Of a DNA stretch of 64,000 nt, positions 6,222-60,900 are shown in pieces. The stretch's first letter is position 1. Each line of letters starts with the position of its first letter. A program made the translations under genes and the position numbers. The notes beneath the pieces are model-generated. The model was not told the origin of the DNA, ran no database searches, and was given only the letters and a program-made list of their open reading frames with translations. The DNA lies in IMG/VR virus record IMGVR_UViG_3300030110_003594, positions 1-64,000 of that record; one strand, given 5' to 3'. The DNA is from a virus.

Positions 6222-6277
6222 AATTTCTAAATTTTAATTATTATTATAACATTCCGTTTGGTCCTACACTACCACCT
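6215..6277. repeat. Gene-boundary direct repeat, copy 1
   Basis: About 60 bases here closely match 6645-6706. On the plus strand both read ttggcataatttctaa, then taattattattataa, then a segment ending tttggtcctaca. The unit spans the 3' coding end of one gene (encoding GPNG-M/V-L), the intergenic gap and the start codon of the next gene. Confidence 0.75.
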
Positions 6278-6651
6278 CTTTTCATTCTTCCACCTCTTTT
6301 TCTAATACCTGTTTCTCTAGGAACTATACCTTGTTCAAGTTGCGTACTTGTAGTGTTTCCAAAACTGACATCAGGATTAATCATACCTCCTCCCCTTGGA
6401 TCTATAGGAAAGTTAGGAACACGCGGATTTAAAAGTTGTCCTTTAATATGTGGACTCATATCTTTATGTGAAGGTCTAAATATATTAGCTATTCTAGTAC
6501 CTATATTACCTAACCATGATCTTTCTTGTGGTGGTGGAGGTGTAATCATAAAGTCTTTGAATGAATCTGGACCCCATCCCTCTTGAGCTTTAAACATTCC
6601 TGGAACTGCTTTTCCACCGTATTTATAAGGTTTTTTCATATATCTTGGCAT
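6244..6651 (-). CDS. Small protein (135 aa) with GG..PGMFKAQEG motif and GPNGML tail
   Basis: The N-terminus is MPRYMKKPYKYGGKAVPGMF then KAQEGWGPDSF, a copy of the GG...KAQ.G motif found in three giant proteins at 43-58 kb. The middle is Pro-rich and looks extended. The C-terminus is Arg/Gly-rich and ends GGSVGPNGML, almost identical to the end of the next upstream gene (GGAVGPNGVL). No enzyme motif. The shared motifs link it to the virion proteins, and I infer an assembly, scaffold or cargo role. The gene lies between the two copies of the boundary repeat. Confidence 0.55.
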   Translation of the reverse strand: MPRYMKKPYKYGGKAVPGMFKAQEGWGPDSFKDFMITPPPPQERSWLGNIGTRIANIFRPSHKDMSPHIKGQLLNPRVPNFPIDPRGGGMINPDVSFGNTTSTQLEQGIVPRETGIRKRGGRMKRGGSVGPNGML

Positions 6652-13992: not shown

Positions 13993-14561
13993 TACCTTCC
14001 TCTTCTTTTCATATCATGTCTACCACCTGGAAGACCACATGAACCACCTCTTTTCATTTGCCCACCACCACCTCCGGTAGTTGCAACTGATCCGTTTGAT
14101 CCTAATATTATTACTTTTTTTCTTTTCTTAGAACTATTAGATCCACCCCTTTTCTTAGGAGATGTCATTGCTTTTTGTAAATTACTAGGGATTGTTCTAG
14201 CTTTATTTATCATATCATCTTTTTGGATCTTAGTTTGTAAAAGATTATTTTGTTGTTCAAGCATCTGATTTTTTACTTTAAGTAAATTCAATTGTTCTTG
14301 AATAGCTTGCTGTCTCATTGCATTTCTTCTAGCAAGTTCTTGTTGAGTCATGTTCATAATTTGCTGTCTCATAAGATTTTGATCTTGTTGTTGACTCATC
14401 ATCATTTGCTGTTCTGCAGACATGTTTGGTCCTCCCGTCTCTTCCAGTGCCTGTTGTGCTGGATTAGGTACTATATCACCAGGAGTAAGTTCACCTTGAG
14501 TAGTCATTGTTGGATCTGGAGTTTCTTTACCTTTTTGATATTTTCTTTTATAATATGCCAT
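13992..14561 (-). CDS. Gln/Met-rich coiled-coil protein with basic Gly-rich tail (189 aa)
   Basis: The N-terminal part is Pro/Gly-rich. Residues 48-115 are a long Gln/Met/Leu helix (QQMMMSQQQDQNLMRQQIM and so on) predicted to be a coiled coil. The C-terminal third is basic and Gly/Ser-rich (KKRGGSNSSKKRKK, GGGGGQMKRGG). The mix of coiled coil and basic tail resembles scaffold or DNA-associated virion proteins; MKRGGS is also found at the end of the 135-residue protein (6244-6651). No enzyme motif. Confidence 0.55.
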   Translation of the reverse strand: MAYYKRKYQKGKETPDPTMTTQGELTPGDIVPNPAQQALEETGGPNMSAEQQMMMSQQQDQNLMRQQIMNMTQQELARRNAMRQQAIQEQLNLLKVKNQMLEQQNNLLQTKIQKDDMINKARTIPSNLQKAMTSPKKRGGSNSSKKRKKVIILGSNGSVATTGGGGGQMKRGGSCGLPGGRHDMKRRGR

Positions 14562-43070: not shown

Positions 43071-46000
43071 TTAATTTCCAAACCAATTTCTTAATTCTCC
43101 TCCTTTTTTTAATATTCTGCTCTTTCTATTTGTTTCTCTTCCCCATCTTGCTGTCTTACCTCCTGGGTAACCACTTGCTATAATAGGTGCATTTTGCTGT
43201 GCAAATGTTGTATTGCTTTTACTAGTGTTAGGTATATTATACATTGGTAATCTATCCCACTGATCTTCAGGAAGTATCTTCTTAAGCTCAGTTATAGTAT
43301 TTTTATAATCCTCTAAAGATGTTTTAGGATCTTTATAGTTAGGATCTGCATAAAAAGCTTTAGGATCTGTAATATTAATCATACCTCCTGTAGAAGGATC
43401 AATATCAAACTGAGGATAAATACTATTTAGATTAGCAGTGTTTGCTCTATTAGTATAAGCAGCTTGTAACTGTGTTGTAATAGCAGCATTAGCTTTTCTA
43501 AGTGAATTATCATAGTTCTCCTCTGTTAATACAGTATTATCATATAATTGTTTTAACTCATTATTATTTAATACTTGAGTTTTATACTGTAATTCTGCAT
43601 TTTTAACTTTAATATCATTTGCTGTTTTAATATTATTAGTATGAACTTTATTCACTGCATCAGCAATTTGTGTTGCTGCTTTACCTTGTGCTGCAAGTGC
43701 TGCAGTAATACCTCTTTTACTTCCACCAAATGCTCCAGCTGCATCAGCTACTATTGAAGCTTGCTCACCTATTGCAGCAATTTCTCTAGTAGGATCATCA
43801 AATGTTGCATCAATTTGAATTTGATCATATTGAGGTGCCCATGGATAACGTTTCTTTAAACTCATTTTAGCATCCATTGCATTAGCTAATCCAAGTTCAT
43901 CTTGTAACCAGAAAGGTGTATCTTTTTTTGTTGGTGGTGGTATTTTTGTTGGTGGTATTGGTTTATCACATTTACAACTGTTAGCTGGATCCTCTTCATT
44001 GTATGGTGTCCATGTACCTCCTACCTCTACACATGCAGCTTCCATTCCTTCTGCATTTGCACATGGTGTTCCAGGAGTTTCTTCAAATTGTGACTCATAC
44101 TGTTGATTAGTTGTATTACCAAAAAAACCATCAGCTGGTGATATATTCATAGTAACTGGTTTACCATTTATATCTAAAAATTGTGTAGTCTGATCAGCAA
44201 CACCAGTTTGCATAAATTCATCATAAGATTCTTCATTCAATACTAATGCTTGTCCACCAACATAGCCTGCTTGTACATGTTTTATTTGATCTTGAGTTAA
44301 TGGTGGTAATTCTTCATTATCTGCAAAATACTTATTATACATAAAGTTAGCATCTTGTTCTTTTCCATCTTTCTTCCAAAATTTACCATCAATCTCTCTA
44401 CATCCACTTTCACCTTTTGTACATGGTACATAATTATATAATCTATCCCATGATGGGTGACTTAATTCTTCTTGAGATAAATTGTTTTTTAAATAATCAT
44501 TTTGTTTTTGGTATCTAGCATATAATTCATGATATTCATCTTCTGCTAGTGGTGTAAGTCCTTTAGTCTTTGCATAATCTGAATAAGCTCTATATCTATC
44601 AGCTCTATAACTTTCTTGATCATCTGATAAATATCTATCTGACCAAACTGAGGTTCCTCCTTGATATGTTGAAGATGTACCTTCTGTATCTTCACGTGAT
44701 ACATTAATGTTTTCTATTTTTTGATCTATAGTTTCTGTATCTATACCAAGAATAGTTTTAGCTAATTGTATTTTTACAGGATCTCCACTCTTAAGCATTT
44801 TTTCTAACTGCTTTATTTTATATGTTTTACCTTCAAACTCTATACTCTTACCTCTTTTAGCTAATGGTAATTCATCATCTACTTGATTAAAGAAATCTTG
44901 AAGATAATTTTCACCACCCATATTCATATTAATATTACTTCCACTTATAGTTCCAATTTCTGGACTGACTTCTTGTTCTAGTACTGGAGAATTTGATAAC
45001 TCAAACTTCATTTTTAATATTTCATTTTGATACCTTAATATAAGACTTTGAATATGCATTCTTGCATCTTCTGACATTTCTGGTGAAAGCATTTGTTGGT
45101 GCATTGCATTTATTTTCATTTCTGCTTGCAAAATATATTGTTTAAGAGCTTCTTTTTTGCTTAAATTTTTTGTTTCACCTTGAGGAGATACTGGAGTTCC
45201 TCCTTTTTGGAATGCCCATTGAGCTCCTACATAATATGGATTTTCTGTATTTGAATAATCTAACGGTAGTCCTACAGCTTGTCCTGGTGTAGTTGGTTGA
45301 TCTGAAGAAGTATTATCTGAATCAGGAGTTCTAAGAACATAGCCAGGTCTACCTTTTGGATCAGGATCTCCTTCATTAGGTTGATCTTGATTATCTATAT
45401 TATAAATATTTGTCATACTATTATCTGAATCTGAATCTCCATAAGTAGGTTCTTTACCATATACGTTTTTATAAGCTTCTGAATAGTTAGCATCATAACT
45501 AGATGGAGCTGGTCCACCTTTTCTAATATGATCTTCCCATATTTCAACTTTATTAGAATCTACATTACCTGTAACATTAAACATATTCATTTGTTGTTGT
45601 ATACTTGGAATATTTGATAATGTCTTATTAAATTGATCTATATTAGCTTGATAAGCTTTATTATATTGCTCTATTAATTGAGCATTTTGTGATGTTAATA
45701 CTTCAATTATTTGTTCAGAATTTAATACACTAGGATCATTATTTTCTCCTGGATTTCCTGTTTCTACTTCTGGAGCATGTAGTAATTCATCATCATATAA
45801 AGGTAGATTATAATTACTTGGATGTACATATAAATTATCTAAAGGTTGTACATATATACTATCCATATTAAAATTATAACTTGGTATACTATCATTATAT
45901 AAACCATTTTGAGCTTTAGGTAAAGGTTGTCCACCGTTTCTCATTTCATCTTTATGTAGATAACCCATTTCTTTCATACGTAAATGATCTTCATACTTTT

Positions 46001-48425
46001 CAGCCATATAACCTTTTTTAGTTTCTGGATCATACATCATGTGTGGTTCAAATTCTTCTCCTCCTTTTTTCCACAATCCTGTATATTCACCAAGTGCGCC
46101 AATACCATATCCAACATTTTGAAATACACTTGCTACAGGATTAGCTGCTGCCATTGCTTGCAGTTGTTGTCTATTCTTTGCATCAGGATCACTTAAAGTA
46201 TGTTCAGTAAATGAGCTATGATCACCCATAAATAAACCTGTTGGATTCCATTTACTTACTAAACTATCGTATGTATTTCCAACTACATAGTCAGGTTTAA
46301 CATTAGTATCTAATTCTACAGTGGGTGGAATATAAACACCTGTAGTATCTGCTTCATGTACAAATTGATTTTCTGGTATACTTACATTTTCTATACCATC
46401 ATCTGCTTTATATAGATTTCCACCATATTTTTTATTTAAGCCAATTGTATTACCTATTTTATTTACTGCATATCTTAAAGGTGCATAATCTAACCAAGGA
46501 TTTTCTTTATAAATAATATTGTTTAAAAACTCATCTCTAGTGATACCAGCTTTGTTCATTATTTTATTAATATCATTTATATTAACATTATGTTTTTTTA
46601 ATTTATTTTTTGCAAGACTACCTGTTGCAAGATCATAAAGCTCACTTGCACCAAAGTCTTTAAATGAAGGTACTAAACTATTCATAACGTTATCATAGTT
46701 TTCCCATAATTGATATTTATGCCAATCAGAAATACCCTCTAAATTATGCCAATTTTTATTTAACATATTTTTAGGAAGATAGCTTAAACTTTTTATTTTC
46801 TTTACTGTTTTTTCATCTAAGCCTTCAAATACATTTTTCTTTTTCTTTTTGTTTCCTCCTCCTGTTTTTCTAATAGGTATTCCAAGACCTACACTAAATT
46901 GTGGACTTTGATTAGCAATATCATATCCGCCAGTAAGATTAAGATTCCCAATATTAAAATAACCACCTAATGTATTACTTTGATCTCCCATAAGTGGATG
47001 TGTATAATATGCACCTAATCCATATTGCATTGGATTTCCTCTTCTTCCTCTTAAATAATTTTTATAACTATGAGCATCTCCAATTTCACCTGTGTATCCT
47101 AAAGTTGCAACAAGATTTGCAAAAGGATCAATTGTATTAAGATCTTGACCTTGATTAACTGAAGTCATTCTACCACCTATATTTCCACCAAAATAACCTT
47201 TTAATCCTCCCATACCATGAGAAGGATTAAATGTATAACCACTAGTAAGTCTAGCTGATCCAGTATATTCATCATCTAACATACCTGCTGACATTCCAAA
47301 TCCAAGACCAAAATCGTGCATAGGATCATATTCTCTTTGTCTACAATTTGCAAAACATCTACCTTCTGCATCAACTATTGGAGCATGTGCAGTAAATTCT
47401 TTCATACCTTTACTTTCCACTCCATCTTGTGCTTTGTATAAATTAGATATTTGACCCCCACGTCTTGCCATTGCTGGTTGTTGCATTGGAGGTTGAGGTG
47501 GCATCATACCTGGAGGAGGACCCATAGGTGGCATTCCACCTTGTTGAGGTGGCCCCATTGGAGGCATACCTCCCTGTGGTGACATTCCTTGTGACATTTC
47601 AGCACCAACTGTTCCACCTTCACTTGGTGGTATCATACCTGATTGTTGTGCATCTTGTTGTGCCATAGCTGCTTGTTGTTGCATAGCCATTTCAGCTTTC
47701 ATTTTTAATATCTGCATTTGACTTTCAAAAGGTAACTGTGTCATCATTTGTTGTTCTGCTTCTTGCTGACTAATATCTTGTATTTGTTGAGAGAACTCTA
47801 TTGGATTAATACCCTTTTCTTGAAGATATGGATAAGCTGCTAAAGGTACACCATCTTCAAATCTTTTTTTAGCTTCTTGTAAAAATGCTAATTGAGATAA
47901 TGATTTCTTATTTTTAGTTAACATATATTCAGCTGTATCTCTTGTTATATTGTCAGAATGTTCATCATCTAATAAACCTATAAAATTATTTAATTGATAA
48001 CCTTTAGATACTTTTGCTGGAGTTATTTTCTTTTTAGAATTAATACCCATTTCAGCTAATTCATATCTATCAAGTTTCATACTAGAAGTATCTGAATATA
48101 TAAAAGATTGTGGTGGTAAATTTAACGGGGTACCACCTTTATGATGTCTATTTCCTCCTATATCATATAGTTCAAAATCTCCATCATTATTCATGTCTGT
48201 TAATACTGTCTCACCTTTTTCTGCTTCAAGGTTTGCTTCTTCTCTAGGTACAGGAGCTAATGAGTAATTAACTGAACTAAATGGACTAGCAGCATTTGTA
48301 GAATCCAATGAAGGAACTCCTACTAAACCATAGTTGAATTGATCACCTGTTGTACCCCCGTCCTGGTACACCTTTCCATTTTGCATGGAAAAGCCTTTTG
48401 GTAAACTTTTTATTCTTACTTTCAT
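43071..48425 (-). CDS. Giant structural protein (1784 aa) with barrel-like module and GG..KAQ.G motifs
   Basis: The N-terminus has EKGETVLTDMNNDGDFELYD and GGNRHHKGGTPLNLPPQS, a layout I recall from large unnamed proteins of marine Bacteroidota phages. A Met/Gln/Pro linker (QGGMPPMGPP repeats) follows at about 250-320. Residues about 365-525 read like outer-membrane barrel strands (SARLTSGYTF, GLKGYFGGNIGGRMT, LVATLGYTG, QYGLGAYYTHPL, GGYFNIGNLNLTGGY, PQFSVGLGIPI). Three copies of GG-x-KA(Q/D)-x-G (KAQDG, KADDG, KAQNG) occur at about 322-335, 665-675 and 828-841. The C-terminal 250 residues are helical and Ala-rich, ending KKGGELRNWFGN. There are Cys pairs in GTPCANAEGMEAAC and SCKCDKP. No enzyme seen. 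I infer an ejection or tail protein. Confidence 0.55.
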   Translation of the reverse strand: MKVRIKSLPKGFSMQNGKVYQDGGTTGDQFNYGLVGVPSLDSTNAASPFSSVNYSLAPVPREEANLEAEKGETVLTDMNNDGDFELYDIGGNRHHKGGTPLNLPPQSFIYSDTSSMKLDRYELAEMGINSKKKITPAKVSKGYQLNNFIGLLDDEHSDNITRDTAEYMLTKNKKSLSQLAFLQEAKKRFEDGVPLAAYPYLQEKGINPIEFSQQIQDISQQEAEQQMMTQLPFESQMQILKMKAEMAMQQQAAMAQQDAQQSGMIPPSEGGTVGAEMSQGMSPQGGMPPMGPPQQGGMPPMGPPPGMMPPQPPMQQPAMARRGGQISNLYKAQDGVESKGMKEFTAHAPIVDAEGRCFANCRQREYDPMHDFGLGFGMSAGMLDDEYTGSARLTSGYTFNPSHGMGGLKGYFGGNIGGRMTSVNQGQDLNTIDPFANLVATLGYTGEIGDAHSYKNYLRGRRGNPMQYGLGAYYTHPLMGDQSNTLGGYFNIGNLNLTGGYDIANQSPQFSVGLGIPIRKTGGGNKKKKKNVFEGLDEKTVKKIKSLSYLPKNMLNKNWHNLEGISDWHKYQLWENYDNVMNSLVPSFKDFGASELYDLATGSLAKNKLKKHNVNINDINKIMNKAGITRDEFLNNIIYKENPWLDYAPLRYAVNKIGNTIGLNKKYGGNLYKADDGIENVSIPENQFVHEADTTGVYIPPTVELDTNVKPDYVVGNTYDSLVSKWNPTGLFMGDHSSFTEHTLSDPDAKNRQQLQAMAAANPVASVFQNVGYGIGALGEYTGLWKKGGEEFEPHMMYDPETKKGYMAEKYEDHLRMKEMGYLHKDEMRNGGQPLPKAQNGLYNDSIPSYNFNMDSIYVQPLDNLYVHPSNYNLPLYDDELLHAPEVETGNPGENNDPSVLNSEQIIEVLTSQNAQLIEQYNKAYQANIDQFNKTLSNIPSIQQQMNMFNVTGNVDSNKVEIWEDHIRKGGPAPSSYDANYSEAYKNVYGKEPTYGDSDSDNSMTNIYNIDNQDQPNEGDPDPKGRPGYVLRTPDSDNTSSDQPTTPGQAVGLPLDYSNTENPYYVGAQWAFQKGGTPVSPQGETKNLSKKEALKQYILQAEMKINAMHQQMLSPEMSEDARMHIQSLILRYQNEILKMKFELSNSPVLEQEVSPEIGTISGSNINMNMGGENYLQDFFNQVDDELPLAKRGKSIEFEGKTYKIKQLEKMLKSGDPVKIQLAKTILGIDTETIDQKIENINVSREDTEGTSSTYQGGTSVWSDRYLSDDQESYRADRYRAYSDYAKTKGLTPLAEDEYHELYARYQKQNDYLKNNLSQEELSHPSWDRLYNYVPCTKGESGCREIDGKFWKKDGKEQDANFMYNKYFADNEELPPLTQDQIKHVQAGYVGGQALVLNEESYDEFMQTGVADQTTQFLDINGKPVTMNISPADGFFGNTTNQQYESQFEETPGTPCANAEGMEAACVEVGGTWTPYNEEDPANSCKCDKPIPPTKIPPPTKKDTPFWLQDELGLANAMDAKMSLKKRYPWAPQYDQIQIDATFDDPTREIAAIGEQASIVADAAGAFGGSKRGITAALAAQGKAATQIADAVNKVHTNNIKTANDIKVKNAELQYKTQVLNNNELKQLYDNTVLTEENYDNSLRKANAAITTQLQAAYTNRANTANLNSIYPQFDIDPSTGGMINITDPKAFYADPNYKDPKTSLEDYKNTITELKKILPEDQWDRLPMYNIPNTSKSNTTFAQQNAPIIASGYPGGKTARWGRETNRKSRILKKGGELRNWFGN

Positions 48426-48428
48426 AAT

Positions 48429-51400
48429 TTATAATATTTCTATTTGTGCCCCTGCGGCTATTAATTGTTTATATGTATTCATATCTATTTCCATTTCTCC
48501 TCCGTCATTAAAAAATGATCCTCCATATTTAGTCATTGTTGTACCATCAACTACTTTGTCATCTGGTCTAAATATTCCTGTGTTTACATCATAATCACCT
48601 TTCATTCCTGTTATATCTGCATCTCTTGCTGCAAACATATTATCTGATAGATAAGCATTTTGCATCATTGTTTCTTTTCTTTCAGCTTCTTCTCTAGCTT
48701 CAAGAATTCTATTAAGAGGTTTACCTATTCTAACTATACCTTGTCCTATCTTACTATATGTTTGTCCTACCTTACTATCTAAAGCTCTATTTTTAAGATT
48801 CCAAAGTTTATCTCCAAAAGACATACTTGAATCTTTATTATCTTTGTTCAATTGTCTTTCTCTTAACTTTCTTCTCATTTCCTCTTGATCTTGTTCTTCT
48901 TGCCAATCTAAATATTCATTTCTATCATCAAATCCTAATTCTTGTGATTTCTCTAATTCTTTAACATGTTTTCTTTTTCCTTGATATTTAGGTATATTAT
49001 CCATATAATCACTTATTTCAGATTTAGTTTCTCTACTACTTTTTCTGATGTCTGCCATTTTATTTCTCATATATTTATCAGGATCAGTTCTCATTAATCT
49101 ATGATCCATCATGTCTGATCTAAGATCAAAATCTCTTTGTAAATTAGGATCTATATTTATTTCTGGAACATCAAAAGGACTTGTTTGTGTTTCAATTAAA
49201 GATGGATTCTGTATTTTGTCATTCATATCTGCAGTAAATGCATTCCATTCATCCATAGATCTATTGACAGATTGATTATAAGCAAACATTCTATCACTTG
49301 AGTTAAAGAATGGCTCCGTCTTTTCTTGAGGAGTTGTTTGATTATCAAACATATCCATACTAATAGGTGTTGAATATAAATCTGTATTAATATTAAAAGG
49401 ATCAATTTGATTAGTATGTGGATTATATCCTGTATTATAATTATCAATACCAAAAGGAGAACCTGCAAATTGAAATTTAGGTAACTCACCACCTTTATCA
49501 AACCCCCAATAGTTTGCAATATTAGACCAAGTTTTTTTCTTAAAAGGATTTTGCCATTCAAAATCATCAAGTGTTTCACTAACTGGTTTTGTTACATTTT
49601 CATATAGATAATCATTTGTATCCTCAATAGCATCAGATACAGGTACTGTAACGTTATCATACAAATAGTCATTTACATCTGAAAACGTTTCAACTGTTTT
49701 ATCTATTCCATCTGATATAAGGTTTTTAGTCATTTCAATATTTTGCGCTTGCAAAACTCTAAAAGGTTTCATACTACTATGTATTTCTAAACCCTTTTCT
49801 ATTACATCTTTCATAGATAATCCAAGCCATGAATTATCACCAGCAGAAAGTACTGGTAGTACATTTTTATAAAGATTCTCCATCTCTTTAAAATTACCTT
49901 CACCATCTAATACATTTTGTATACTTCTTCTTTCTCCTGTTTGTTTTATTCTTGGAATGTCATCTTGTGTTAAAAGATAATCCATTAACAATGTTGGATC
50001 TGTCATATTTAAAACATTAAACTGTCCATCATTCATATCATCATCTATATCTAAAGCTTTACATACACCATCAGCACAATTACTATCATAGAAATCATAT
50101 TCTGCTGGATCTGTTCTAGGATCAACACTTACAGGAAGAGTTCTACTAGGCCATCCAATATCATATTCTTTACCCATAAAATCAAAGGTAGTCCCAAGTC
50201 TCTGATTTGTACCTGGCTTAAATGTTTGTGCTGTTTTCATAAAGTGATTAAGCTGATCTAATGTAAGTTCTAAATCAACTTCTCTAACACCTCTTTCATA
50301 ATCACCATCAGTATAGTCAGTAAGTGGATTATATTCTTGATCTGCTTCTACCCATCTATTAACATATCCTTTGTGTACAAATTTACCATCTTCTTTTTTA
50401 TTCCAGTTATTAGGAAGATTTTCTTGATCTAGAACAAATGCTTCTATATGTCCTGGAGGCATTCCTCCTACTCCATCCCAACGGTCAGATCCACCTTCAT
50501 ATCCATAAGGATATTGTCTTACTCTAACTGTATATGTTTTTTCTTCTGATCCATAACCACCAAAAGGTTCATAACCATCATCAACACCAGTGGTTGGAAT
50601 TTGGTATCCAGTTTGTGCTTTAGGTAATTCTCCACCTTGTTTTCTACTTAAGTATCCAATATTTAAAGTAGGTAGATTTTTATCTTCCCACCAATTTTTT
50701 ACATTTCTTCCTATTCTAGTTCTATCTCCTAAAAAGTTAAGACCATAATTAATTGCTCCTGTGTATAAACCATCTTTAACACCCTGCTTAACATTTTGCC
50801 AATATGCATCAGCTAAATCACCTTTTTGCAAAACATTATTTTTATTCATAACAATGTCTTTACCAAAGAGATTATCATCCGTACCTCTAAACCATGCAAA
50901 ATTAGGTTCAGAGTGTCCATCTAAAAGTTGTAATCTTTGTTCTTCCCAAGAAGGACAATTTCCTGTTGTACACATTTTGTCATACCAATCAGTTCCTCGT
51001 TGATCTATATAATCCTCATATGCGTTTCTATAATTTTTTCTATTAGTTATTCCTGTATTAAGACCTCTTGTAAGCATACTACCAAGACCAACAGTTCCTG
51101 CTAACTTTAAAGATTGTTCAAGATTAGATCTACCATCTCTTGAATTAACATAATTACCAAGTCCAAATTGTGCTTTAGGTATTGACCCTCCATATCTTTC
51201 ATCATTTCCTGGTCCTAAAATATCATCAATTTCTTCAGGACTCATTCCTCTGGCTAACATAGCTTCTCTTGTCATAGCATTTTCTGGATTTTCTAAGTCT
51301 TCTATATTTTGTGAAACTCCTGTAACAGGTTTACTATATGTTCCATCTGGTCCTACATTAGATATTATATTAGGATTTAAATTATAAGGTACTCCTGAAT

Positions 51401-52649
51401 TAGCAGCATGTTTAGGACTATTTAAATATTCTTGACTATAGTTATAATTATCTGGATTGTTAGGATCAAATGGAATTCCTGAAAACCCTGTTTCAAAATC
51501 TTGTTGATTATATTTTGTAGGATCATCTGGATTTTGTGTTAAATAATCAAAGGCTGAGGAATAATTACCCTCATCATCTACTGTCCATCCTATATGTGTT
51601 GCTCCTTGTTCTCTATATTTATTTTCTAGAATATCTCCTTCAAAACCTTCATGCTTCCTATTAAAAAGACCTTTTCTATAATCAAGATGTCCTGTCTCTC
51701 TAAATAGATCAATATCAAAATCTTTTACTTTAGAATATTTTTCTGGATTTCTTCTATGCCTTTCATCAAGATAATTTTGATAATATTTTTCCTCCATTTG
51801 TTCTTTATCTTTTAAAAACTTACCTGACTTATGAGGTGTTTTAAAAAATTGTTCTGGATCAAAATATAAATCTTCATCAGTTGTATTTGTAAAACCAGCT
51901 TTCATATAATCCCATTTACTACCTGGATCATAATAATTTTCTTTCTTAAAACTTTTTGCTGTTGTATCTATTGCTTTTATTAAATCAAACAATCCTGTAT
52001 CACCTACACCTGATAATAAATTTGCTTCTTCTGGAGATCTAAATTCTTCATCATAGTATACAGCATTTGTTCCTTCTTCTACTTCTTTGTTAGCATTATC
52101 TATTTCACTATCATCATCCTTATCATCATCTTTTGTAGTATTATCTGAAGTTATTGCTTCTGGATATGCTGCATTTAATTTATCTGTTGCTTCTTTATTT
52201 TCTGCTAAACTAATCCATTCTCCTGTTGATCCTTTTTTTCTTGTATACCAAACACCATCAATTATTTTATAGTCATATGCATCATCATGATCAGCATATA
52301 CTCCATCATTTGTTTCAGTGTTTTTCTTTGAAATATTAACAACATTATTAGAAGTGGTAGAACTAGTAGTACTATTGTTAGTAGTAGTATTATTATTATT
52401 ATTATCAACTTCTGTATTAGCAGGGCCAGGACCTGTACCATCAGTATCAGGACCAGTATTACTTTGCCATGCACCACCTTGATATATGTGTTTAGTGTGC
52501 ACACCATTAGCATCTATTTTAAAGTAAACTCCATCTTTACTTATTGTAGATGGATCAACTTGTTGACCTAGTATATTTATCCAGTGCTCACCACCATGTT
52601 CATATGATGGATTAAAACCTTTAATATGTGGATTATTATATAAAAACAT
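48429..52649 (-). CDS. Giant structural protein (1406 aa) with permuted NlpC/P60-like domain
   Basis: The N-terminal 150 residues are Asn/Thr-rich. Residues about 690-880 contain VRVRQYPYGYEGG, GHIEAFVLD with H734, a middle beta region, then DSNCADGVCKALD with Cys858. H before C, followed by a helix after the NC, is the order of permuted papain-like (NlpC/P60, LRAT-like) hydrolases, which often cut peptides in the cell wall. Three GG-x-PK-x-Q motifs (GGSIPKAQFG, GGELPKAQTG, GGELPKFQFAG) mark domain borders at about 485-495, 670-680 and 1052-1064. The C-terminal 330 residues are charged and helical (KLRERQLNKDNKDSSM, EAREEAERK). The gene is 3 bases from the next stop and starts 59 bases from the upstream gene. 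I infer a virion protein with a hydrolase module. Confidence 0.55.
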   Translation of the reverse strand: MFLYNNPHIKGFNPSYEHGGEHWINILGQQVDPSTISKDGVYFKIDANGVHTKHIYQGGAWQSNTGPDTDGTGPGPANTEVDNNNNNTTTNNSTTSSTTSNNVVNISKKNTETNDGVYADHDDAYDYKIIDGVWYTRKKGSTGEWISLAENKEATDKLNAAYPEAITSDNTTKDDDKDDDSEIDNANKEVEEGTNAVYYDEEFRSPEEANLLSGVGDTGLFDLIKAIDTTAKSFKKENYYDPGSKWDYMKAGFTNTTDEDLYFDPEQFFKTPHKSGKFLKDKEQMEEKYYQNYLDERHRRNPEKYSKVKDFDIDLFRETGHLDYRKGLFNRKHEGFEGDILENKYREQGATHIGWTVDDEGNYSSAFDYLTQNPDDPTKYNQQDFETGFSGIPFDPNNPDNYNYSQEYLNSPKHAANSGVPYNLNPNIISNVGPDGTYSKPVTGVSQNIEDLENPENAMTREAMLARGMSPEEIDDILGPGNDERYGGSIPKAQFGLGNYVNSRDGRSNLEQSLKLAGTVGLGSMLTRGLNTGITNRKNYRNAYEDYIDQRGTDWYDKMCTTGNCPSWEEQRLQLLDGHSEPNFAWFRGTDDNLFGKDIVMNKNNVLQKGDLADAYWQNVKQGVKDGLYTGAINYGLNFLGDRTRIGRNVKNWWEDKNLPTLNIGYLSRKQGGELPKAQTGYQIPTTGVDDGYEPFGGYGSEEKTYTVRVRQYPYGYEGGSDRWDGVGGMPPGHIEAFVLDQENLPNNWNKKEDGKFVHKGYVNRWVEADQEYNPLTDYTDGDYERGVREVDLELTLDQLNHFMKTAQTFKPGTNQRLGTTFDFMGKEYDIGWPSRTLPVSVDPRTDPAEYDFYDSNCADGVCKALDIDDDMNDGQFNVLNMTDPTLLMDYLLTQDDIPRIKQTGERRSIQNVLDGEGNFKEMENLYKNVLPVLSAGDNSWLGLSMKDVIEKGLEIHSSMKPFRVLQAQNIEMTKNLISDGIDKTVETFSDVNDYLYDNVTVPVSDAIEDTNDYLYENVTKPVSETLDDFEWQNPFKKKTWSNIANYWGFDKGGELPKFQFAGSPFGIDNYNTGYNPHTNQIDPFNINTDLYSTPISMDMFDNQTTPQEKTEPFFNSSDRMFAYNQSVNRSMDEWNAFTADMNDKIQNPSLIETQTSPFDVPEINIDPNLQRDFDLRSDMMDHRLMRTDPDKYMRNKMADIRKSSRETKSEISDYMDNIPKYQGKRKHVKELEKSQELGFDDRNEYLDWQEEQDQEEMRRKLRERQLNKDNKDSSMSFGDKLWNLKNRALDSKVGQTYSKIGQGIVRIGKPLNRILEAREEAERKETMMQNAYLSDNMFAARDADITGMKGDYDVNTGIFRPDDKVVDGTTMTKYGGSFFNDGGEMEIDMNTYKQLIAAGAQIEIL

Positions 52650-52708
52650 TAAGTTACAGTTTACTTTATTAATATACTAAATATTCATGAGATTTACTAA
52701 TGATTCGG

Positions 52709-55700
52709 CTACCTATTGGACCTTAAGATACTTTTCATTACATCTAATTGATGTAGTCCACTTGTTTTTGAATCATTGTAATACATCCTATTTAATTTAT
52801 CATATAATTTATTTGCTTTATTTTCTTGTTTGGTTCCTTTGTATACTCCACTAATATAATCATTATAAAATTGAACTTGATTTTTCATTCCAAATTCACC
52901 ACCAAGTTTACTAAAAGGATTTAAATCTACCTTATCCCACCATTCAGAAACGTTTTCTTTTACTTCACCTAATTCATCTATTACTGCATCAATTTTAGGA
53001 GCTACATTTTTATTATATCCATGTTTTATAGTTTCTCCTAGATTAAGTATTTTTTCTTCAATAGGTTTTTCTTTTATTCTTTTATTTGATTCTGGATTAA
53101 GATCTGAATATTCTCCTTTTACAATAACATTATTATCTACATTATCAATATCAGTTTCTTGTAAATCTATATAATCAATATATTTATTTACCATATTAGC
53201 ATAATCATCACCTCCCGTAGGACTATATTTTTTTGGTAATTCTGTATATATATCAAAGTCTGGATCTTTCTTTTGTGATGAAGATATTTGATTTTGATAC
53301 TCTTTATAAAGAATTGCAATAGTTGCTTTAGCTGAATTTGCTGGATCCATAAGTTGATCATTAGAAGTAATCCCTACTTTTTTAAGAGCTTCTATTTCTG
53401 TTTCATCACGTTCATTCCATCTTATTTGTGTCCAACCAACACTTCTATTATCACCTGTTACACCATATGTTTCATATTTTGATCTGACATCCGGTGATGT
53501 ATCACCAAGATTTAAACCTGTTTTATTAGTTAAATATTTAGTTCCTGCTTTAATAAAATTTTCTGAAGCACTACCTTCATCACCCATACCACTTTCATAT
53601 CCATATATTCCAAAAGCTATTAATGCTAAATCATTATACATATCTCCATCCATTCCTAATTTATCCATCATAAACTTTTTATTATCAGTGAGGGAGTTTA
53701 AAAATGGTTGAGTATTATTTACAAATTCTTCTTCTTCACCTGCTGCTGTTCCATCATATCTTTCAGAATTAGTTTGATAATAGTTTTTATCAAAAGTAAT
53801 ATTAATTGGTTTGTATGTACTTGTCATCTTATTAGCAATTCCATGACCGTCTTGTTCATTACCTTCTGAATCTATATAAGTTTGATATTCTTTTTGATTA
53901 TCTCTACTTGCATAAAAATTAATTTCACCATTTTCATATACAAAATTATTACCAGCATCTTCAGGTAATATAAAAACTTTAGTTCCTTCACCTACATCTG
54001 GATTTTCATATAGTTCTGTTAATGCTGTACAAGTACCATTAATACATCCATTAGTCATTCTATTATTATCACTATTACCATCCTGTAAAGAGTTTATTCT
54101 ATCTACATCTTTTGAACTAGGAACTGTATGAATTACCATAGGAACTTCATCATCATTTGCATTCTTTAAAACAAAAGATGGAGTTGGTCTTCCTTCTCCT
54201 GAATCATCATAATATCCACTATCCTCATTCATTGTTCCTATTGTATAAACACCTGCACCAGTTTGTTTATTTCCTTTAGCCCAATCTATTTCAGATGTAT
54301 AACCTTCAACTTCCATAAGTTCATCTATTGAACCTGCATCATGTTTTTCCATAGCGTTGTTAAGTCCTTCTCTATCTAACTTTACACCGTTATAAAAGAA
54401 TGATCCTTTAGTAACTGTTTGTGCATCTCCTACATTTTCACCTGTTAAGATAGGATAACTTTTAACTGGTTTATCATTACCAGGATAATATAAATGCATT
54501 CTACCTTTTTTCTCATCTACAACAATATAAGGTTTACCTGCAGATTTATTTATCTTTATATTTTGTCCTATTTGTATTTCATCAGCATTAGTTATATTAT
54601 TATCTGATAATAATTTTTCTAGGGTTACTCCATTTTCACTTGCTATAGTAGAAAGATTATCATTCCTTTTTACTGTATAATTAATTTGTTTAGAATTATC
54701 TCCTTCAATTTCATTCATACCTTGTGTAATTCTATCAGCTTGATCCATTTTGTTTATTTGAGTCTTTATAGTTCTTTTACCAGAGTTTTCCCATTTTCCT
54801 TTGTCTGAATTCCACTTCCTTCTATTCCAACTAGTATTTACACCATGATTATCATCAACATTCATTTCTCCTACTTCTGTATATGGTGACTCAATTATTT
54901 TTTTATTTCTGTTTATATTTTTATCATTTGTATTAACATTATCTGGTAATGTTATTTTTTGACCAGGTTGAATTTTTCTTGGATCAGATATATTATTTAA
55001 TGCAGCAATATCTTGGTATCTAACTCCATATTTACTTGCTATTGCTGATAATGTATCTCCACTCTTTATTTCATAAGTAAATGTTGCAGTACTATCATCT
55101 ATACTAGTATTTTCAGAAAGTGATATTCTATCTCCAGAATATATTGTACTTGGATCATCCATATATTTTGGATTTAAAGTTAATATTTCAGATAGTGTCA
55201 TATTGTTAGCTCTTGCTATTCTAGAAAGATTATCTCCTTTTTTAACTACATATGATTTTTGCACAATAGGTTCTCCACCTGTTTGCATTTTAGGTTTAAT
55301 TAAATTAAGTTTTTCTAATTCTTTTTTTGCTAAAGGAGATACTTTACCTCCAGAATTATATGATTCTAATTGTTGATTTAATCTTTGAATTTTTCTTAAA
55401 AATTCTCCACCTAATTTTTTCTTAGGTCCAGGTATTCTTTTTTTTGTTTTAGGATCATAATAAATTCTACCATATAGTTGAGGAGGATTCATATCACCAA
55501 TAGTATTAATAATACCATCTACAACTTTACTACTAGGATTAATATTCCAATTATCAAAATAACTAATGTAATGACCGTGATCATCTTTACCTTTGTCTAA
55601 TTTAAAATTACCTAATACATCTCCGTATAATCCTTTACCTAAATTTGGATTTTCTTTTTCATAAGCATCAAAAAACCAACCATCTTTAGTTCTTATACAA

Positions 55701-57919
55701 CCTTCTTCACCTTTTTTGCATGGTATCATTTCTGGTCTATTATGATAATCTCTAGCAAAATTAGTTATATCACCATCATTTCTATCTGACCAATCTAAAA
55801 TTTTACTTATTCTATTTGATATTTCATCTTCTGTATATTTAGAAGTATAAAAAGTTGTATCTTCATCAGCTCCTTTTGTAGGTCTGTATCTTGATTCCTG
55901 TATACTATTATATGGTTGTTCAAAATTTAACATCATATTAAGAAGATCTATTCTTTCTTTATATGATACTTCTAATCCTTTATTTATATCTGGATTTGAT
56001 TTCAATGCTTCATCTATATTAGCTCTTTTTTGTTCTAGATTACCATAAAGACCTGCTTCTATAACTCTATTAAAGAAATTATCATAATCATGTGGACTAA
56101 TATTTTCTGCAATATTCTTTTTCATTTCATCTCTTAGCCAAGCAATCATACTAGGACCACCCATTGCAGGAGTCAATATTTTATTAAGCGGGTGTTTAGG
56201 ATTAATCGTTTCATTTGCATGATCATGTATTTGCCATACAGGACTTACAACATTTTTAATACCTTCATATATTTTTTTAGCGTTTCCTTTTTCTTCTCCT
56301 CCTTCTTTCTTTTCAAATACATATCTTCCTTCATCATCTATTGTATAATACATTCTATTATATAATGATGCTGGTTGTACTCCTAATATATTTTCTTGTG
56401 CAAAATCAGAAAGTTTTTCCTTCCAACCTCCTTCATATTGATATGGAGATAAATCCCATTTATCATAGTAACTAATGTATTTACCTTTTTTATCTTCTCC
56501 TTGATTTAAAGTAAAGTTACCTAAAACGGAACCATAAAATCCACCAGACTGACCAGTTCCCTCTTCTTCATTTCCAGCTGTTGTTAAAAAAGTTTCAAAA
56601 TCAGGAAACTCAACCCAGCTATAATTATCCTCTATTTGTTTTTTTGTTTCCTTTTCCCATTTTTTATAATTACTACTATTTACAAAATCTTTGTGTTCTT
56701 GTATATCTTTATAGTATATGTACTTATCTGGCTCATCTTCTGCTTTATATTTTAATGTTGTTGCTTGTTTACCATTCCACATATATGGATCATTCTCTGG
56801 ATCATTGCTTTTCTTAAGATCAATTAGCCTATAAAAAAGCTCATAATCAAATTCCTCTTCTAAATTTTCTTCCCAAGCTTTATCTATATCTTCTGGATCA
56901 CCCCGCTCATCTAACAAATAATCCCTATACCAAATGTCTTTTTCAGTTTTTCCTATCCTATTAATATTTTCTTCAATTTCCTGTTCAGTGTATGGTGAGG
57001 AATAATATATATCTCCTTTGTTATGACCTTGAGTAGGAACGTATGTAGTTTGTTGTGGTATTGAATTACCTTCTTGATCAAGACCCATTAACAAATGTAA
57101 TAAATCTCTTCTTTCACCAGTTGCATCTTCACCTATATCTCCAAAATCATATTTTTTATCTTCTTTGGTAAAAATAGCATCATAAAGTCTATCATATGCA
57201 TCTTCATATCCCCATGGATCTATATTATCTGCTATTTTATTTTTTACCCAATCCACACCTTTATCAACTAGATAACTAGTAGTAGGCATAAGAGGACCTA
57301 GTAAATTTATCATGCCTAATCCATCCTGTGCTTTTGGTAGTGAACCTCCATCTTTAAATCTATGTTGTAAAGATATTTTAGGTTTAAATTGTAATGGTAG
57401 TTTTTGTACATTTTGATTTACAAAATATTCATGAGGATCATTTAAGATTGGTGAACCAATATTTAAAGCTAGATCTGTATTTCCAAAATTCTGTCTAATA
57501 CCTAAATCAAACGCACCTTTAAATATAGGATCATTATCCATTGGTAAAATACCAGTTGCATTAAACTGTGTACCTGTTGGAAAAGTATATCCTGCACCAC
57601 CTATCAATTGATTTTCTGCAGGATTATGATGTAAGAATGCACCAATATTTTTTCTTTGTCCTGGATCCCAACTAAAAGTATTTTTTAATGGTATCTCTTT
57701 AACTTTTGTTGTACCCATATTATGTATACCAGAATTAGGAGGTAATAATCTACCATTAGCTAATAATGGAATACTAACATTTGTCATATCTATTTCACCT
57801 GTTGGTGTATCAATATCTATGTAAGGTCTACTCTTAAAAGGAGAATCATCCCTATATCCAAACTTTGATATAAGTTCATTACTTGAAGGTATTTTATATT
57901 TTATTTTTGGTTCACTCAT
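52709..57919 (-). CDS. Giant tail-associated cell-wall enzyme: 3 LysM, L,D-transpeptidase-like, transglycosylase-like
   Basis: 1736 residues. From the N-terminus: a barrel-like beta segment (about 85-187, ending LQHRF) followed by KDGGSLPKAQDG; two related helical segments (about 200-560 and 600-860) with YGDVLGNFKLDKGKDD- and YGSVLGNFTLNQGEDK-type repeats. Then three LysM domains begin at about 890 (VVKKGDNLSRIA), 949 (EIKSGDTLSAIA) and 1078 (TVKRNDNLSTIA). An L,D-transpeptidase (YkuD)-like domain spans about 1130-1320, with IVVDEKKGRMHLYYPG, H1264 and TNGC1292INGTC as the His/Cys pair. A transglycosylase-like domain follows with GYE1442SGMG and SVGWTQIRW (about 1491-1499), the usual 'ESG ... 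S.GxxQ' order of SLT enzymes. LysM would bind peptidoglycan, the other two would cut or rejoin it. The ATG overlaps the previous stop (TAATG). Domain order is well supported, activities are inferred. Confidence 0.8.
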   Translation of the reverse strand: MSEPKIKYKIPSSNELISKFGYRDDSPFKSRPYIDIDTPTGEIDMTNVSIPLLANGRLLPPNSGIHNMGTTKVKEIPLKNTFSWDPGQRKNIGAFLHHNPAENQLIGGAGYTFPTGTQFNATGILPMDNDPIFKGAFDLGIRQNFGNTDLALNIGSPILNDPHEYFVNQNVQKLPLQFKPKISLQHRFKDGGSLPKAQDGLGMINLLGPLMPTTSYLVDKGVDWVKNKIADNIDPWGYEDAYDRLYDAIFTKEDKKYDFGDIGEDATGERRDLLHLLMGLDQEGNSIPQQTTYVPTQGHNKGDIYYSSPYTEQEIEENINRIGKTEKDIWYRDYLLDERGDPEDIDKAWEENLEEEFDYELFYRLIDLKKSNDPENDPYMWNGKQATTLKYKAEDEPDKYIYYKDIQEHKDFVNSSNYKKWEKETKKQIEDNYSWVEFPDFETFLTTAGNEEEGTGQSGGFYGSVLGNFTLNQGEDKKGKYISYYDKWDLSPYQYEGGWKEKLSDFAQENILGVQPASLYNRMYYTIDDEGRYVFEKKEGGEEKGNAKKIYEGIKNVVSPVWQIHDHANETINPKHPLNKILTPAMGGPSMIAWLRDEMKKNIAENISPHDYDNFFNRVIEAGLYGNLEQKRANIDEALKSNPDINKGLEVSYKERIDLLNMMLNFEQPYNSIQESRYRPTKGADEDTTFYTSKYTEDEISNRISKILDWSDRNDGDITNFARDYHNRPEMIPCKKGEEGCIRTKDGWFFDAYEKENPNLGKGLYGDVLGNFKLDKGKDDHGHYISYFDNWNINPSSKVVDGIINTIGDMNPPQLYGRIYYDPKTKKRIPGPKKKLGGEFLRKIQRLNQQLESYNSGGKVSPLAKKELEKLNLIKPKMQTGGEPIVQKSYVVKKGDNLSRIARANNMTLSEILTLNPKYMDDPSTIYSGDRISLSENTSIDDSTATFTYEIKSGDTLSAIASKYGVRYQDIAALNNISDPRKIQPGQKITLPDNVNTNDKNINRNKKIIESPYTEVGEMNVDDNHGVNTSWNRRKWNSDKGKWENSGKRTIKTQINKMDQADRITQGMNEIEGDNSKQINYTVKRNDNLSTIASENGVTLEKLLSDNNITNADEIQIGQNIKINKSAGKPYIVVDEKKGRMHLYYPGNDKPVKSYPILTGENVGDAQTVTKGSFFYNGVKLDREGLNNAMEKHDAGSIDELMEVEGYTSEIDWAKGNKQTGAGVYTIGTMNEDSGYYDDSGEGRPTPSFVLKNANDDEVPMVIHTVPSSKDVDRINSLQDGNSDNNRMTNGCINGTCTALTELYENPDVGEGTKVFILPEDAGNNFVYENGEINFYASRDNQKEYQTYIDSEGNEQDGHGIANKMTSTYKPINITFDKNYYQTNSERYDGTAAGEEEEFVNNTQPFLNSLTDNKKFMMDKLGMDGDMYNDLALIAFGIYGYESGMGDEGSASENFIKAGTKYLTNKTGLNLGDTSPDVRSKYETYGVTGDNRSVGWTQIRWNERDETEIEALKKVGITSNDQLMDPANSAKATIAILYKEYQNQISSSQKKDPDFDIYTELPKKYSPTGGDDYANMVNKYIDYIDLQETDIDNVDNNVIVKGEYSDLNPESNKRIKEKPIEEKILNLGETIKHGYNKNVAPKIDAVIDELGEVKENVSEWWDKVDLNPFSKLGGEFGMKNQVQFYNDYISGVYKGTKQENKANKLYDKLNRMYYNDSKTSGLHQLDVMKSILRSNR

Positions 57920-60900
57920 TATCTAAAAGATGCATTAATTTTTGTATTAGCTAATTTTAATATCATTTTTCTATCAGCAGATATATTTTTTCTAAGTATA
58001 ACTTTATTCCAGTAATGTCTAAATTTCTTACGTTGTAGCTCTGGTTTATTATAATCTAAGTTTGCTTGATTTAAATCTTTTATATAACCATTTAATTGTG
58101 TTATAAATATTGGCAGATTCCAGTTAGGATCAAACTCACCTCTATCTCTTGTAATATCCCAGAACTGATTAAATCTATATTTCTGTTCTACTTTACTATA
58201 TAGTATTCTTATCTCATTACCTGTAATAAAAGGGAATTGTGTAATTAAAGGTACATTGTTTTTAGGATCTAGTGTTAATGCAAGTTCCCCTGATACTTGT
58301 TCAGTGTTGTGTATTATTGCATGATCAAAATTCCAATCTAAATCATGGAATCTATCACCACAATTATCATCTAAGTTTCCTCTATAGATATAAGATTCTA
58401 ATTGATACTCTACACTTCTAATTGTATTAACAGTTTGACCTACAGCTTCAACCCATTCTATTTCCCATGGATAATTTTCTCCATAATAGTTTGCATATAA
58501 ATCACATCTATCATTATGTTTCCATATACCACCTTTTGTAAATGTTCCATCTAAACAACATTCATAATCATAATGACACATTTTAGGATTAGAGTTAACC
58601 CATAAAGGATCTCCAACACCTGTGGTTGTATTATACCATTTTGCTATACCATTCATAATATCTGAAGGACATATTCCTGTTGTTGTTACAGGTATTGATG
58701 GAAATGGTAATTGAGTTGGATCACATTCACATTCCATTTTTCTACATACACCATTTTTACCCTCAACTACACAACTTTCATTTAATCCTAAAACTTGATG
58801 AGGAGGTGCTGTACCATCTGTTAATTGAGTTATTCTTTCGTATCCTGCAGGACATGAACATACTGGAGGTAATGTACATAAATTATTAGCTAATGTAGTT
58901 GCAAAATCAGTAACAGTAGCTGGAGTTAAACTTAAGTTTTGATAATTTGTATCACCAGCTGTTACTATATCAAAATCAGCCTGATTAGCAGTTCCAGTTG
59001 GATGACAATATAATCCCCAGCTTTCTGAAGAAATAGTTGCTAATCCTGCAGTCTCAGCTGCATTAGCATAACCAACATTAAAACCAGGATTATTTGGATT
59101 TCCACTTGCATCATTATTAGGAAAGCTTGAAGGCATAGCTCCTTGTAAAGATTGATAATATTGAGAAGCGTGAGCTCCACCACCATTATCACCACCATCT
59201 GCCATTATAATACAAATACGTTTATAAGCTGAATGATCTGTTCTATCTCCTAAAGTAGAATTAAGTACACCAGATAACTGTTGTTGTGCATCATCAAATG
59301 CACAAAAGAAACCAGTAGTACCACCATCACCTGGTATATAATCACTTCCCCAAGTTGTTGAAACTGTATAATTAGACATATTTACTTCACCCTCAAGTAC
59401 CCCTCCTGATCCATCTGGAGATGGTGTATGGTTATAATAATCACCACAACTATCCCATGAAGCTAATCCTATTTGAACATCTCCACTATCCATATCAGTT
59501 TTAAATGCCAATACAAAATCATCAACAAAACTTCTAAAATGGTGTAGAAAATCTTCTGTAGAACCTGATTTATCAATAGCAAGTACAATATCTAATTGAC
59601 AATCAAGTTGCTCTATATAAAATTCAACAGGTACTTCATCAACAATTACATCTGCTTCATAACTACCTTGAAATACTTGACAACATGTTTGTGTTGATGG
59701 ATTCCAAGTAAAGCCAGGAGGACAATTTGGTTCAGCCTCAAGATCTTCATAACTATTAGTTGTGAAGAAATGATTTAAACTTGGTATCATTAATTCAGGA
59801 TGCCAATCGTGGAATGACATCCAAGCTTCATATTTAGGATCATAACTTATTGTCCATGATACATCTTCAAAATATGTTTCATCTTGTAATGAAACTGGCG
59901 TTGTATTATCTAACATTTCAACAGGAGCATATTCTCTACATTCACACATATATTGTCCAGCAGAATTTGTTATTAAATCACATGTAGGATCTGCACATGA
60001 ATATGTTGGTGGAGGTGTTACATCATCTATTATTTCAGTTGCTACAGCTATTATATCTGCAACATCTGCAAAAGCTCCTCCATATGCATTACCAGAATTT
60101 GCAAATTCTTCACCATAATTTAAATGTAGATTTGTTGGAGCATTACCACCTGGATCAACAACAACTGAATAACTTTTTTGAGCATATGGTGCATTCATAT
60201 AATCAGGATTATTTAATACATTAGTATTAAACCATGTACATTCATAATCACCTACACTCCAAGTAGTAGTTGTAGTTGGATCACCTGGCCAAACAACATC
60301 AGGAGTTAATGGACTTACACTCATTCCTTTGTATATATCAGTACCTGTAATACCAGCTTCACTATATGAACTACTTACATAAGATATACCTGGACCTCCG
60401 TTTGCTTGTAATATTGAAATACTACCTTCAGCTACTTGACCTCCATCAAATAATGAAATTAAAACTTTAGGAACTGATCTAGAACCTGTTCCATATAATA
60501 AATTTTGTCCATTCCATACTCCTCCTAATATATCTGTTCCATAAGGATTGTCATCACCTTGACCTAAACCTGTAGAAGTTGATACTCCTCTATCTGCTGC
60601 TATTCCATATGTAGATGTTACATCAGGTTGATAACCTGTATTAGCACCATTCCAATCAAATGTTATTCCTGGTGTACCAACCCATTGATTAATAAGTGTC
60701 ATATCACTAGTTAATTCTTGTTGTTCTCCCCAATTCATAAAAGTATCCGGAGAAGAACAATCTGGACAATTACCTGGATTGTTACAATCTGCTGATGTTT
60801 GACCATGATCTGACATTGGAATATCTGAACATCTACCACCACCAAAATGAGTTAATCCAATTCTAATGTTTCCACTTCCTATTTGAGTTGCTAATTGGTC

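What the first reader, a model, noticed from the sequence alone, without database searches (positions are those of the whole stretch)
45900..57360. Recurrent GG-x-(L/I)-P-K-A-Q-x-G peptide in three giant proteins and one small one
Copies are near 57320-57355, 51160-51198, 50608-50640, 49458-49500, 47421-47462, 46395-46430 and 45902-45940, plus 6577-6625 in the 135-residue protein. Each lies at an apparent domain border, usually after a basic or aromatic strand. No known domain explains it. It could be a maturation-protease site, a docking peptide for packing cargo into the capsid or tail, or a linker with fixed geometry.
Basis: seen in the sequence. Interest (0 to 1): 0.8.

Follow-up and report, generated by a model that had tools for sequence, protein, structure and literature searches.

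The report
Shared tag on phage cargo proteins
A short peptide (GG-x-L-P-K-A-Q-x-G) is repeated between the interchangeable parts of giant proteins that crAss-like phages probably carry inside their particles, and a close variant sits at the very start of many small basic proteins of the same phages, so it probably acts as an address tag for loading proteins into the virion, a tag we found no description of.

Summary
Four clear copies plus four degenerate ones lie where stated, and nothing comparable occurs in shuffled DNA or reversed proteins. The window belongs to a 119.9 kb crAss-like phage record. The three giant proteins sit between the muzzle and the C2/RNA-polymerase genes, the place of the crAss001 cargo protein C1 (gp45). 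One of them shares a domain with phi4:1 gp040, a virion protein found by mass spectrometry.

In uncultivated relatives the peptide marks module borders. Homology between proteins begins or ends at it 5 to 6 times more often than expected, and LysM, transpeptidase, transglycosylase, SET, M91 and barrel-like modules are swapped across it. It is essentially phage-only. A variant, MAx[IV]KKAQxG, forms the N-terminus of about 160 small, strongly basic proteins, and such phages also carry it in their C1-like protein.

My reading is a virion-cargo address tag, comparable in logic to the T4 capsid targeting sequence but not shown to be related. A processing site remains possible, although no T4-type or HK97-type prohead protease was found. 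Tag status is well supported; docking as the mechanism is inferred (about 0.5).

The parts
57320..57358 (-). motif copy FKDGGSLPKAQDG, residues 188-200 of the 1736-aa protein
   Evidence: in frame, profile score 39.6
51162..51200 (-). motif copy ERYGGSIPKAQFG, residues 484-496 of the 1406-aa protein
   Evidence: profile score 35.2
50607..50645 (-). motif copy RKQGGELPKAQTG, residues 669-681 of the 1406-aa protein
   Evidence: profile score 35.3
49461..49502 (-). degenerate copy FDKGGELPKFQFAG, residues 1050-1063
   Evidence: profile score 15.3
47421..47462 (-). degenerate copy RGGQISNLYKAQDG in the C1-like protein, joint between the conserved domain and the barrel-like module
46395..46433 (-). 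degenerate copy KKYGGNLYKADDG in the C1-like protein
   Evidence: profile score 19.8
45903..45941 (-). motif copy RNGGQPLPKAQNG in the C1-like protein, after the EPHMMYDP...EDHL module
6577..6627 (-). N-terminal degenerate copy YKYGGKAVPGMFKAQEG (residues 9-25) in the 135-aa basic protein
   Evidence: the similarly placed gene region of relative L126 holds small proteins starting MRKMKKQLPKAQSG and ...MMKGGTLPKAQTG
14529..14549 (-). tag-like N-terminus KRKYQKG of a 189-aa basic protein (weak)
   Evidence: variants such as MAKVKKYQRGG are seen in relatives
52709..57919 (-). giant cargo-type protein 1: motif-bounded modules with three LysM domains and a YkuD L,D-transpeptidase domain; position of the tail-lysozyme protein of csAssE and of phi4:1 gp041
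48429..52649 (-). giant cargo-type protein 2: modules between motif copies, one (residues 686-1045) with a conserved H...NCAxxxC pattern and relatives in other giant proteins
43071..48425 (-). giant cargo-type protein 3, C1/gp45-like: conserved domain at residues 55-260, then motif, then exchangeable modules
46851..47405 (-). barrel-like beta module (residues 341-525 of the C1-like protein), also found in L009 flanked by the motif on both sides
   Evidence: strands predicted with low confidence
57919..63957 (-). muzzle protein homologue, anchor for synteny

Best explanation
The peptide is a virion-cargo address tag. Core: [L/I/V]-[P/K]-K-A-Q-x-G, in giant proteins usually preceded by an aromatic or basic residue and Gly-Gly. 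One partner in the assembling particle (portal, tail-barrel lining, capsid wall or scaffold; not identified) binds each tag. Small basic proteins carry it once at the N-terminus. Giant C1-like and lysozyme-type cargo proteins carry it between modules, so that a long, partly unfolded chain is held at several points and each module is loaded and later ejected in order. Because every module is joined through the same tag, enzymes can be swapped without losing packaging. Shown here: conservation, module-border position, module exchange, phage-only occurrence, homology of the window's C1-like protein to a virion protein, and the same tag on small basic proteins of the same phages. Inferred: binding to a virion component, and that the small proteins are packaged.
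For: Conservation: 112 non-redundant copies with unconserved flanks; 62-81% identity at the fixed motif positions against 36% in flanks over 200 homologous pairs; K, A and G of the N-terminal KKAQxG invariant in 14 C1-like proteins that are 32-54% identical to the first. Border: homology starts within 10 residues of the motif start 60 times against 11.6 expected and ends at it 79 against 12.7; the same barrel-like module sits in C1 of the window and in a lysozyme-type protein of L009, with the motif at the joints. Cargo context: genes lie between muzzle and C2/RNA polymerase, as in crAss001, csAssE and phi4:1; the C1-like domain aligns with the csAssE protein (96%, E 3.7e-9) and phi4:1 gp040 (77%, E 2.2e-5), which is MS-confirmed; crAss001 C1 is bound to the portal and inside the tail barrel and is modelled as stretched (PMC10172136; PMC10136315). 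Payload: LysM, YkuD, SLT, amidase, lysozyme, SET, M91 modules. Tag behaviour: about 160 distinct small proteins begin with it, mostly as MAx[IV]KKAQxG, net charge +19.5 per 100 residues against -1.1 for untagged neighbours, N-terminal enrichment 6-fold outside the seed pattern, 40 families under strict clustering; eight of nine freshwater-type phages examined have the peptide both in small proteins and in the C1-like protein. Phage-only: of 96 matches in 257 Gb of bacterial and archaeal genomes one looks genuine, in a phage-like contig.
Against: No binding partner is identified and no proteomics exists for any motif-bearing phage. The small tagged proteins sampled have no cultured relative and no Pfam family above its cut-off, so their presence in virions is unproven. 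crAss001 gp45 and phi4:1 gp040 lack the PKAQ core, so the tag is not needed for C1 packaging in general, although gp45 is unusually rich in aromatic-x-GG segments. The window's C1-like protein aligns with crAss001 gp45 only weakly.
Confidence: 0.5

Rival explanations
1. Processing site. A virion-maturation or host protease cuts at or near K-A-Q-x-G, removing a short N-terminal propeptide from the small proteins and splitting the giant proteins into free modules.
For: Domain-sized spacing, mostly 94-1294 residues; predicted disordered context; N-terminal position in small proteins recalls the T4 capsid targeting sequence, which T4 removes by cleavage (own knowledge for the cleavage). Upstream flank better conserved than downstream, about 43% against 29%, as if a junction follows the motif.
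Against: No Peptidase_S77 or S78 in six motif phages (S77 also absent from crAss001 and phi4:1), with controls ringing; no motif in other long proteins of the five scanned genomes except weak hits, whereas maturation sites usually occur in major capsid protein or scaffold; the words cleavage, protease and proteolysis do not occur in the crAss001 structure paper.
Confidence: 0.25
2. Inert or purely evolutionary joint: a flexible linker that spread with exchanged modules, or the fossil N-terminus of genes that were fused, without a binding partner.
For: Predicted disorder; module exchange; resemblance of the joint to N-termini of C1-like proteins (LPKAQIG, VPKAKTG, LPQAKTG).
Against: Codons vary while residues stay fixed; motif columns are far more conserved than flanks in diverged pairs; tags on small proteins that are not linkers.
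Confidence: 0.12
3. Host-side signal: after ejection the peptide is read in the host periplasm or cytoplasm (by a chaperone, protease or envelope protein) and directs refolding or release of each module.
For: Payload modules act on the cell wall or look like effectors; some modules before the motif end in barrel-like strands.
Against: The small basic proteins look like DNA-associated proteins rather than envelope enzymes (inference from charge); not tested.
Confidence: 0.13

Closest known systems
T4 capsid targeting sequence (CTS) of internal proteins
   Same: A short conserved peptide shared by otherwise diverse packaged proteins (PMC3012670).
   Different: No sequence relation tested or claimed; here the peptide is also used internally, up to five times in one protein; no T4-type protease gene found; packaging not shown.
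Crassvirus cargo protein C1 (gp45 of crAss001)
   Same: Gene position after the muzzle; related domain in csAssE and phi4:1 counterparts; Gly-Gly-rich linkers.
   Different: crAss001 gp45 has no PKAQ motif, and one 842-aa protein stands where the window has three proteins of 1406-1784 aa, at least one of them with enzyme modules.
Encapsulin cargo-loading peptides (own knowledge)
   Same: Short linear peptides on cargo that dock to the inner face of an HK97-fold shell.
   Different: No sequence match claimed; partner here unknown.
Prohead-protease sites of T4 and giant phages (own knowledge)
   Same: Short consensus containing a hydrophobic residue, repeated in several virion proteins.
   Different: No S77 or S78 protease found; motif limited to cargo-type and small basic proteins.

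Membership tests
Crassvirus C1 (gp45) cargo proteins, for window 43071-48425 | Gene between muzzle and C2/RNA-polymerase genes | tested here: met
   Muzzle homologue upstream; RNAP-region homologue 18377-23956 downstream; same order in crAss001, csAssE and phi4:1
Crassvirus C1 (gp45) cargo proteins, for window 43071-48425 | Sequence homology to C1 counterparts | tested here: met
   csAssE 96% E 3.7e-9; phi4:1 gp040 77% E 2.2e-5
Crassvirus C1 (gp45) cargo proteins, for window 43071-48425 | Direct homology to crAss001 gp45 portal-bound domain (residues 425-552) | tested here: inconclusive
   Short weak match at gp45 481-511, E 0.011, probability 3.8%; C-terminal comparison negative; freshwater C1-like set matches the gp45 C-terminal region at 77% E 2e-5; no PDB fold match
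Crassvirus C1 (gp45) cargo proteins, for window 43071-48425 | Located inside capsid and tail barrel | not testable with these tools
   needs virions
T4-type capsid targeting sequence | Shared N-terminal peptide on diverse small proteins | tested here: met
T4-type capsid targeting sequence | Sequence relation to the T4 CTS | not tested
   not aligned; no claim of membership
T4-type capsid targeting sequence | Tagged proteins are in the virion | not testable with these tools
   no proteomics for these phages
Prohead maturation site | Genome encodes a prohead protease (S77 or S78) | tested here: not met
   0 of 6 for S78; 0 of 6 plus crAss001 and phi4:1 for S77, T4 control rings; other protease types not tested
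Prohead maturation site | Cleavage at the motif in virions | not testable with these tools
   needs semi-tryptic proteomics

The most novel reading that the evidence does not exclude
A general, so far undescribed protein-packaging code of crAss-like and related aquatic phages: one short tag, [LIV]-[PK]-K-A-Q-x-G, loads both a set of small basic proteins (by N-terminal tags) and giant modular ejection proteins (by serial internal tags), and serves as the plug-in joint through which wall-degrading enzymes and effectors are exchanged.
Probability: 0.45. Interest if true: 0.85.

Novelty: new variant of a known kind. Interest (0 to 1): 0.72.

Why it matters
How tailed phages choose which proteins to carry and eject is known for few models. 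A portable tag readable from sequence would let one list the probable ejected proteins of uncultivated crAss-like phages, many of unknown function, would give a testable handle on how C1-type proteins are threaded through portal and tail, and could serve as a loading tag for reporter proteins in laboratory phages.

Tried and rejected
1) DNA-level repeat or recombination site: rejected, codons vary between copies. 2) Host-encoded or prophage motif: rejected, 96 matches in 84,980 bacterial and archaeal genomes look like chance except one phage-like contig. 3) Known family: no Pfam or PHROG domain covers the motif; 'PKAQ' in the literature gave unrelated papers. 4) S77/S78 prohead protease: not found. 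5) Structure: the C1 N-terminal model is good only for residues 55-260; PDB search gave nothing, and the viral library two hits below 1e-3, both with low TM-scores. The model of the 606-aa stretch of protein 2 is poor (mean pLDDT 42) and was not used. 6) More relatives of the 361-aa module of protein 2: none. 7) Cultured relatives of tagged small proteins and of freshwater C1: none; weak matches in Thermus and Pelagibacter phages are not informative. 8) A claim that tagged small proteins are all unrelated was cut back: loose clustering joins 155 of 164 through Lys-rich or shared C-terminal modules, strict clustering gives 40 families, one of 109. 9) Matches in tape-measure-like proteins of other phages (L050, L057, L062, L110) may be convergent Gly-rich segments and are not used as evidence for function, although some of them are among the 112 instances of the profile.

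Full report
OBSERVATION. Three are strict GGx(L/I)PKAQxG (57320, 51162, 50607), 45903 has one extra residue, and 49461, 47421, 46395 and 6577 are degenerate. One more, IKPKMQTGG at about 55271-55297, was missed. The DNA pattern for [hydrophobic]PKAQxG occurs four times in the window against 0.00 expected from 100 shuffles, with different codons in each copy.

PROFILE. The logo is [FYK]-[KRQE]-[YDKE]-G-G-[SQ]-[LI]-P-K-A-Q-x-G; beyond about four residues before and one after, nothing is conserved. The PKAQ positions are fixed by the collecting pattern, so a second test was run: in 200 homologous pairs of 25-70% identity spanning a motif, where the partner was not required to have it, the fixed motif positions are 62-81% identical and the flanks 36% on average. 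In five near-complete genomes the profile gives 31 hits at score 8 or more and 0 in reversed proteins; nearly all lie in two to three consecutive giant genes, with weak hits elsewhere. In 14 phage records the exact DNA pattern occurs 34 times in 13 records, and its backwards control never. Of 96 matches in 84,980 bacterial and archaeal genomes only L256 looks genuine, on a 114.7 kb contig in a Pseudomonadales bin that is probably phage.

WHAT THE PROTEINS ARE. The window is part of a 119,868-bp virus record. 57919-63957 is a muzzle homologue (structural protein of Cellulophaga phi4:1 and phi17:2, Muzzle of csAssE). 18377-23956 matches the RNA-polymerase-region proteins of crAss001-like phages at about 22%. 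Between them lie the three motif proteins, in the place where csAssE has a tail lysozyme and a C1-like protein, phi4:1 has gp041 and gp040 (both MS-confirmed structural proteins) and crAss001 has C1/gp45 and C2/gp46. The N-terminal domain of 43071-48425 has 40 matches in the loci, itself included, and aligns with the csAssE protein (96%, E 3.7e-9) and with phi4:1 gp040 (77%, E 2.2e-5). Direct alignment to crAss001 gp45 is inconclusive, although a freshwater-type C1-like set matches the gp45 C-terminal region (77%, E 2e-5). In crAss001, C1 is resolved at the portal wing and inside the tail barrel and is thought to be ejected first (PMC10172136).

MODULE BORDERS. Among motif proteins, local homology starts within 0-10 residues of a motif start 60 times (11.6 expected) and ends at its last residues 79 times (12.7 expected). 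BLAST extension into a shared motif can sharpen these peaks by a few residues but is unlikely to create the coincidence. Spacing between motifs is 94-1294 residues (one pair 8 apart). Examples: the barrel-like module at residues 341-525 of the window C1 also lies in a 2566-aa lysozyme-type protein of L009, there between ...GGSLPQAQGG and ...GGQLPKAQYG; module 500-668 of protein 2 lies in C1 of L008 and L157 directly after LLPKAQFG. Identical upstream sequence GNNPNFKFNLGGSLPKAQEG is followed by different modules in L009 and L010. Pfam domains in 28 motif proteins: LysM, YkuD, SLT, SET, Peptidase_M91, Amidase_2, PG_binding_1, lysozyme. AlphaFold gives pLDDT of about 90 or more for most of the C1-like domain (residues 55-260) and below 50 for residues 306-350, which hold the motif.

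A TAG ALSO AT N-TERMINI. Several small basic proteins begin with the core: MRKMKKQLPKAQSG and ...MMKGGTLPKAQTG in L126, whose small-protein region resembles the window around 6244-6651 in gene order, MATVKKPIKKAQNG and MAKIIKKAQGG in L100. Median net charge is +19.5 per 100 residues against -1.1 for untagged small ORFs of the same loci; outside the seed pattern, [KP]KAQxG is six times denser in the first 25 residues than elsewhere. Strict clustering of the remaining sequence gives 40 families (one of 109, 30 singletons), and 32 of 85 loci hold two or three families; looser clustering merges most of them through Lys-rich or shared C-terminal segments. Eleven genomes carry 59 matches of the [PK-type]KAQxG pattern and none of the backwards control. 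In nine of them a second region was read: eight show the muzzle, C1-like, C2-like cassette with KAQxG in the C1-like protein, while small tagged proteins lie elsewhere in the same genome; the ninth region (L411) covered only small proteins. Across all loci the residue before KAQ is mostly Pro in large and Lys in small proteins, partly because of the two search patterns, so treating the two forms as variants of one tag is a step that is inferred, helped by phages that use both forms (G016, G017).

MECHANISM. Shown: a conserved peptide, phage-specific, in predicted disordered joints of exchangeable modules of cargo-type proteins, and at N-termini of small basic proteins in the same phages. Inferred: that one virion partner reads it. 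The logic matches the T4 capsid targeting sequence, where diverse internal proteins share only a short peptide for encapsidation (PMC3012670). Processing remains the chief rival; S77 and S78 proteases were not found while T4 and bacterial controls rang, but an unknown or host protease is not excluded.

VERDICT. It is not a member of a described family as far as the libraries and the paper searches here can tell; it works like a cargo-packaging tag, with the partner unknown.

Noticed in passing
window 57919-63957: The muzzle homologue carries two inserted von Willebrand A-like segments (VDIVFVVDASNSV..., LDIVLAIDKSGST...), seen by eye; relatives L017-L025 mostly have matches of about 3.4 kb instead of 6 kb, so the insertions are probably variable.
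   Followed up: no
window 17919-18248: Small protein resembling a SET domain by eye, beside the RNA-polymerase-region genes; SET domains also occur as modules inside giant motif proteins of relatives.
   Followed up: no
window 45940-46100: A 40-residue module EPHMMYDPxTGKGYxAxxYEDHLxMxKMGYxH, often just before the motif, also in proteins of Methylophilales phage Melnitz and other marine contigs, no Pfam family seen.
   Followed up: partly
window 46851-47405: Barrel-like beta module rich in Gly-x-Tyr strands inside a cargo protein; could be an outer-membrane-type barrel delivered on infection, but the model has low confidence.
   Followed up: partly
window 23963-39559: A single 5198-residue open reading frame among the cargo and RNA-polymerase genes.
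   Followed up: no
L290-L392: Tagged small proteins often share C-terminal pieces (GKWIQKAIKKPGALR, TPAWQRKEGKNPSGGLNAKGRASYN, SFPDLNKDGKITKAD), and lie next to a gene resembling Dps by eye.
   Followed up: no
L286 11988-14516 (crAss001 gp45): gp45 has 2.4 GG pairs per 100 residues, the highest of the crAss001 proteins examined, many after aromatic residues; possibly a distant form of the same joint.
   Followed up: partly
L256: A 114.7 kb contig binned as a Pseudomonadales MAG that carries the motif in a long protein and is probably a crAss-like phage.
   Followed up: no
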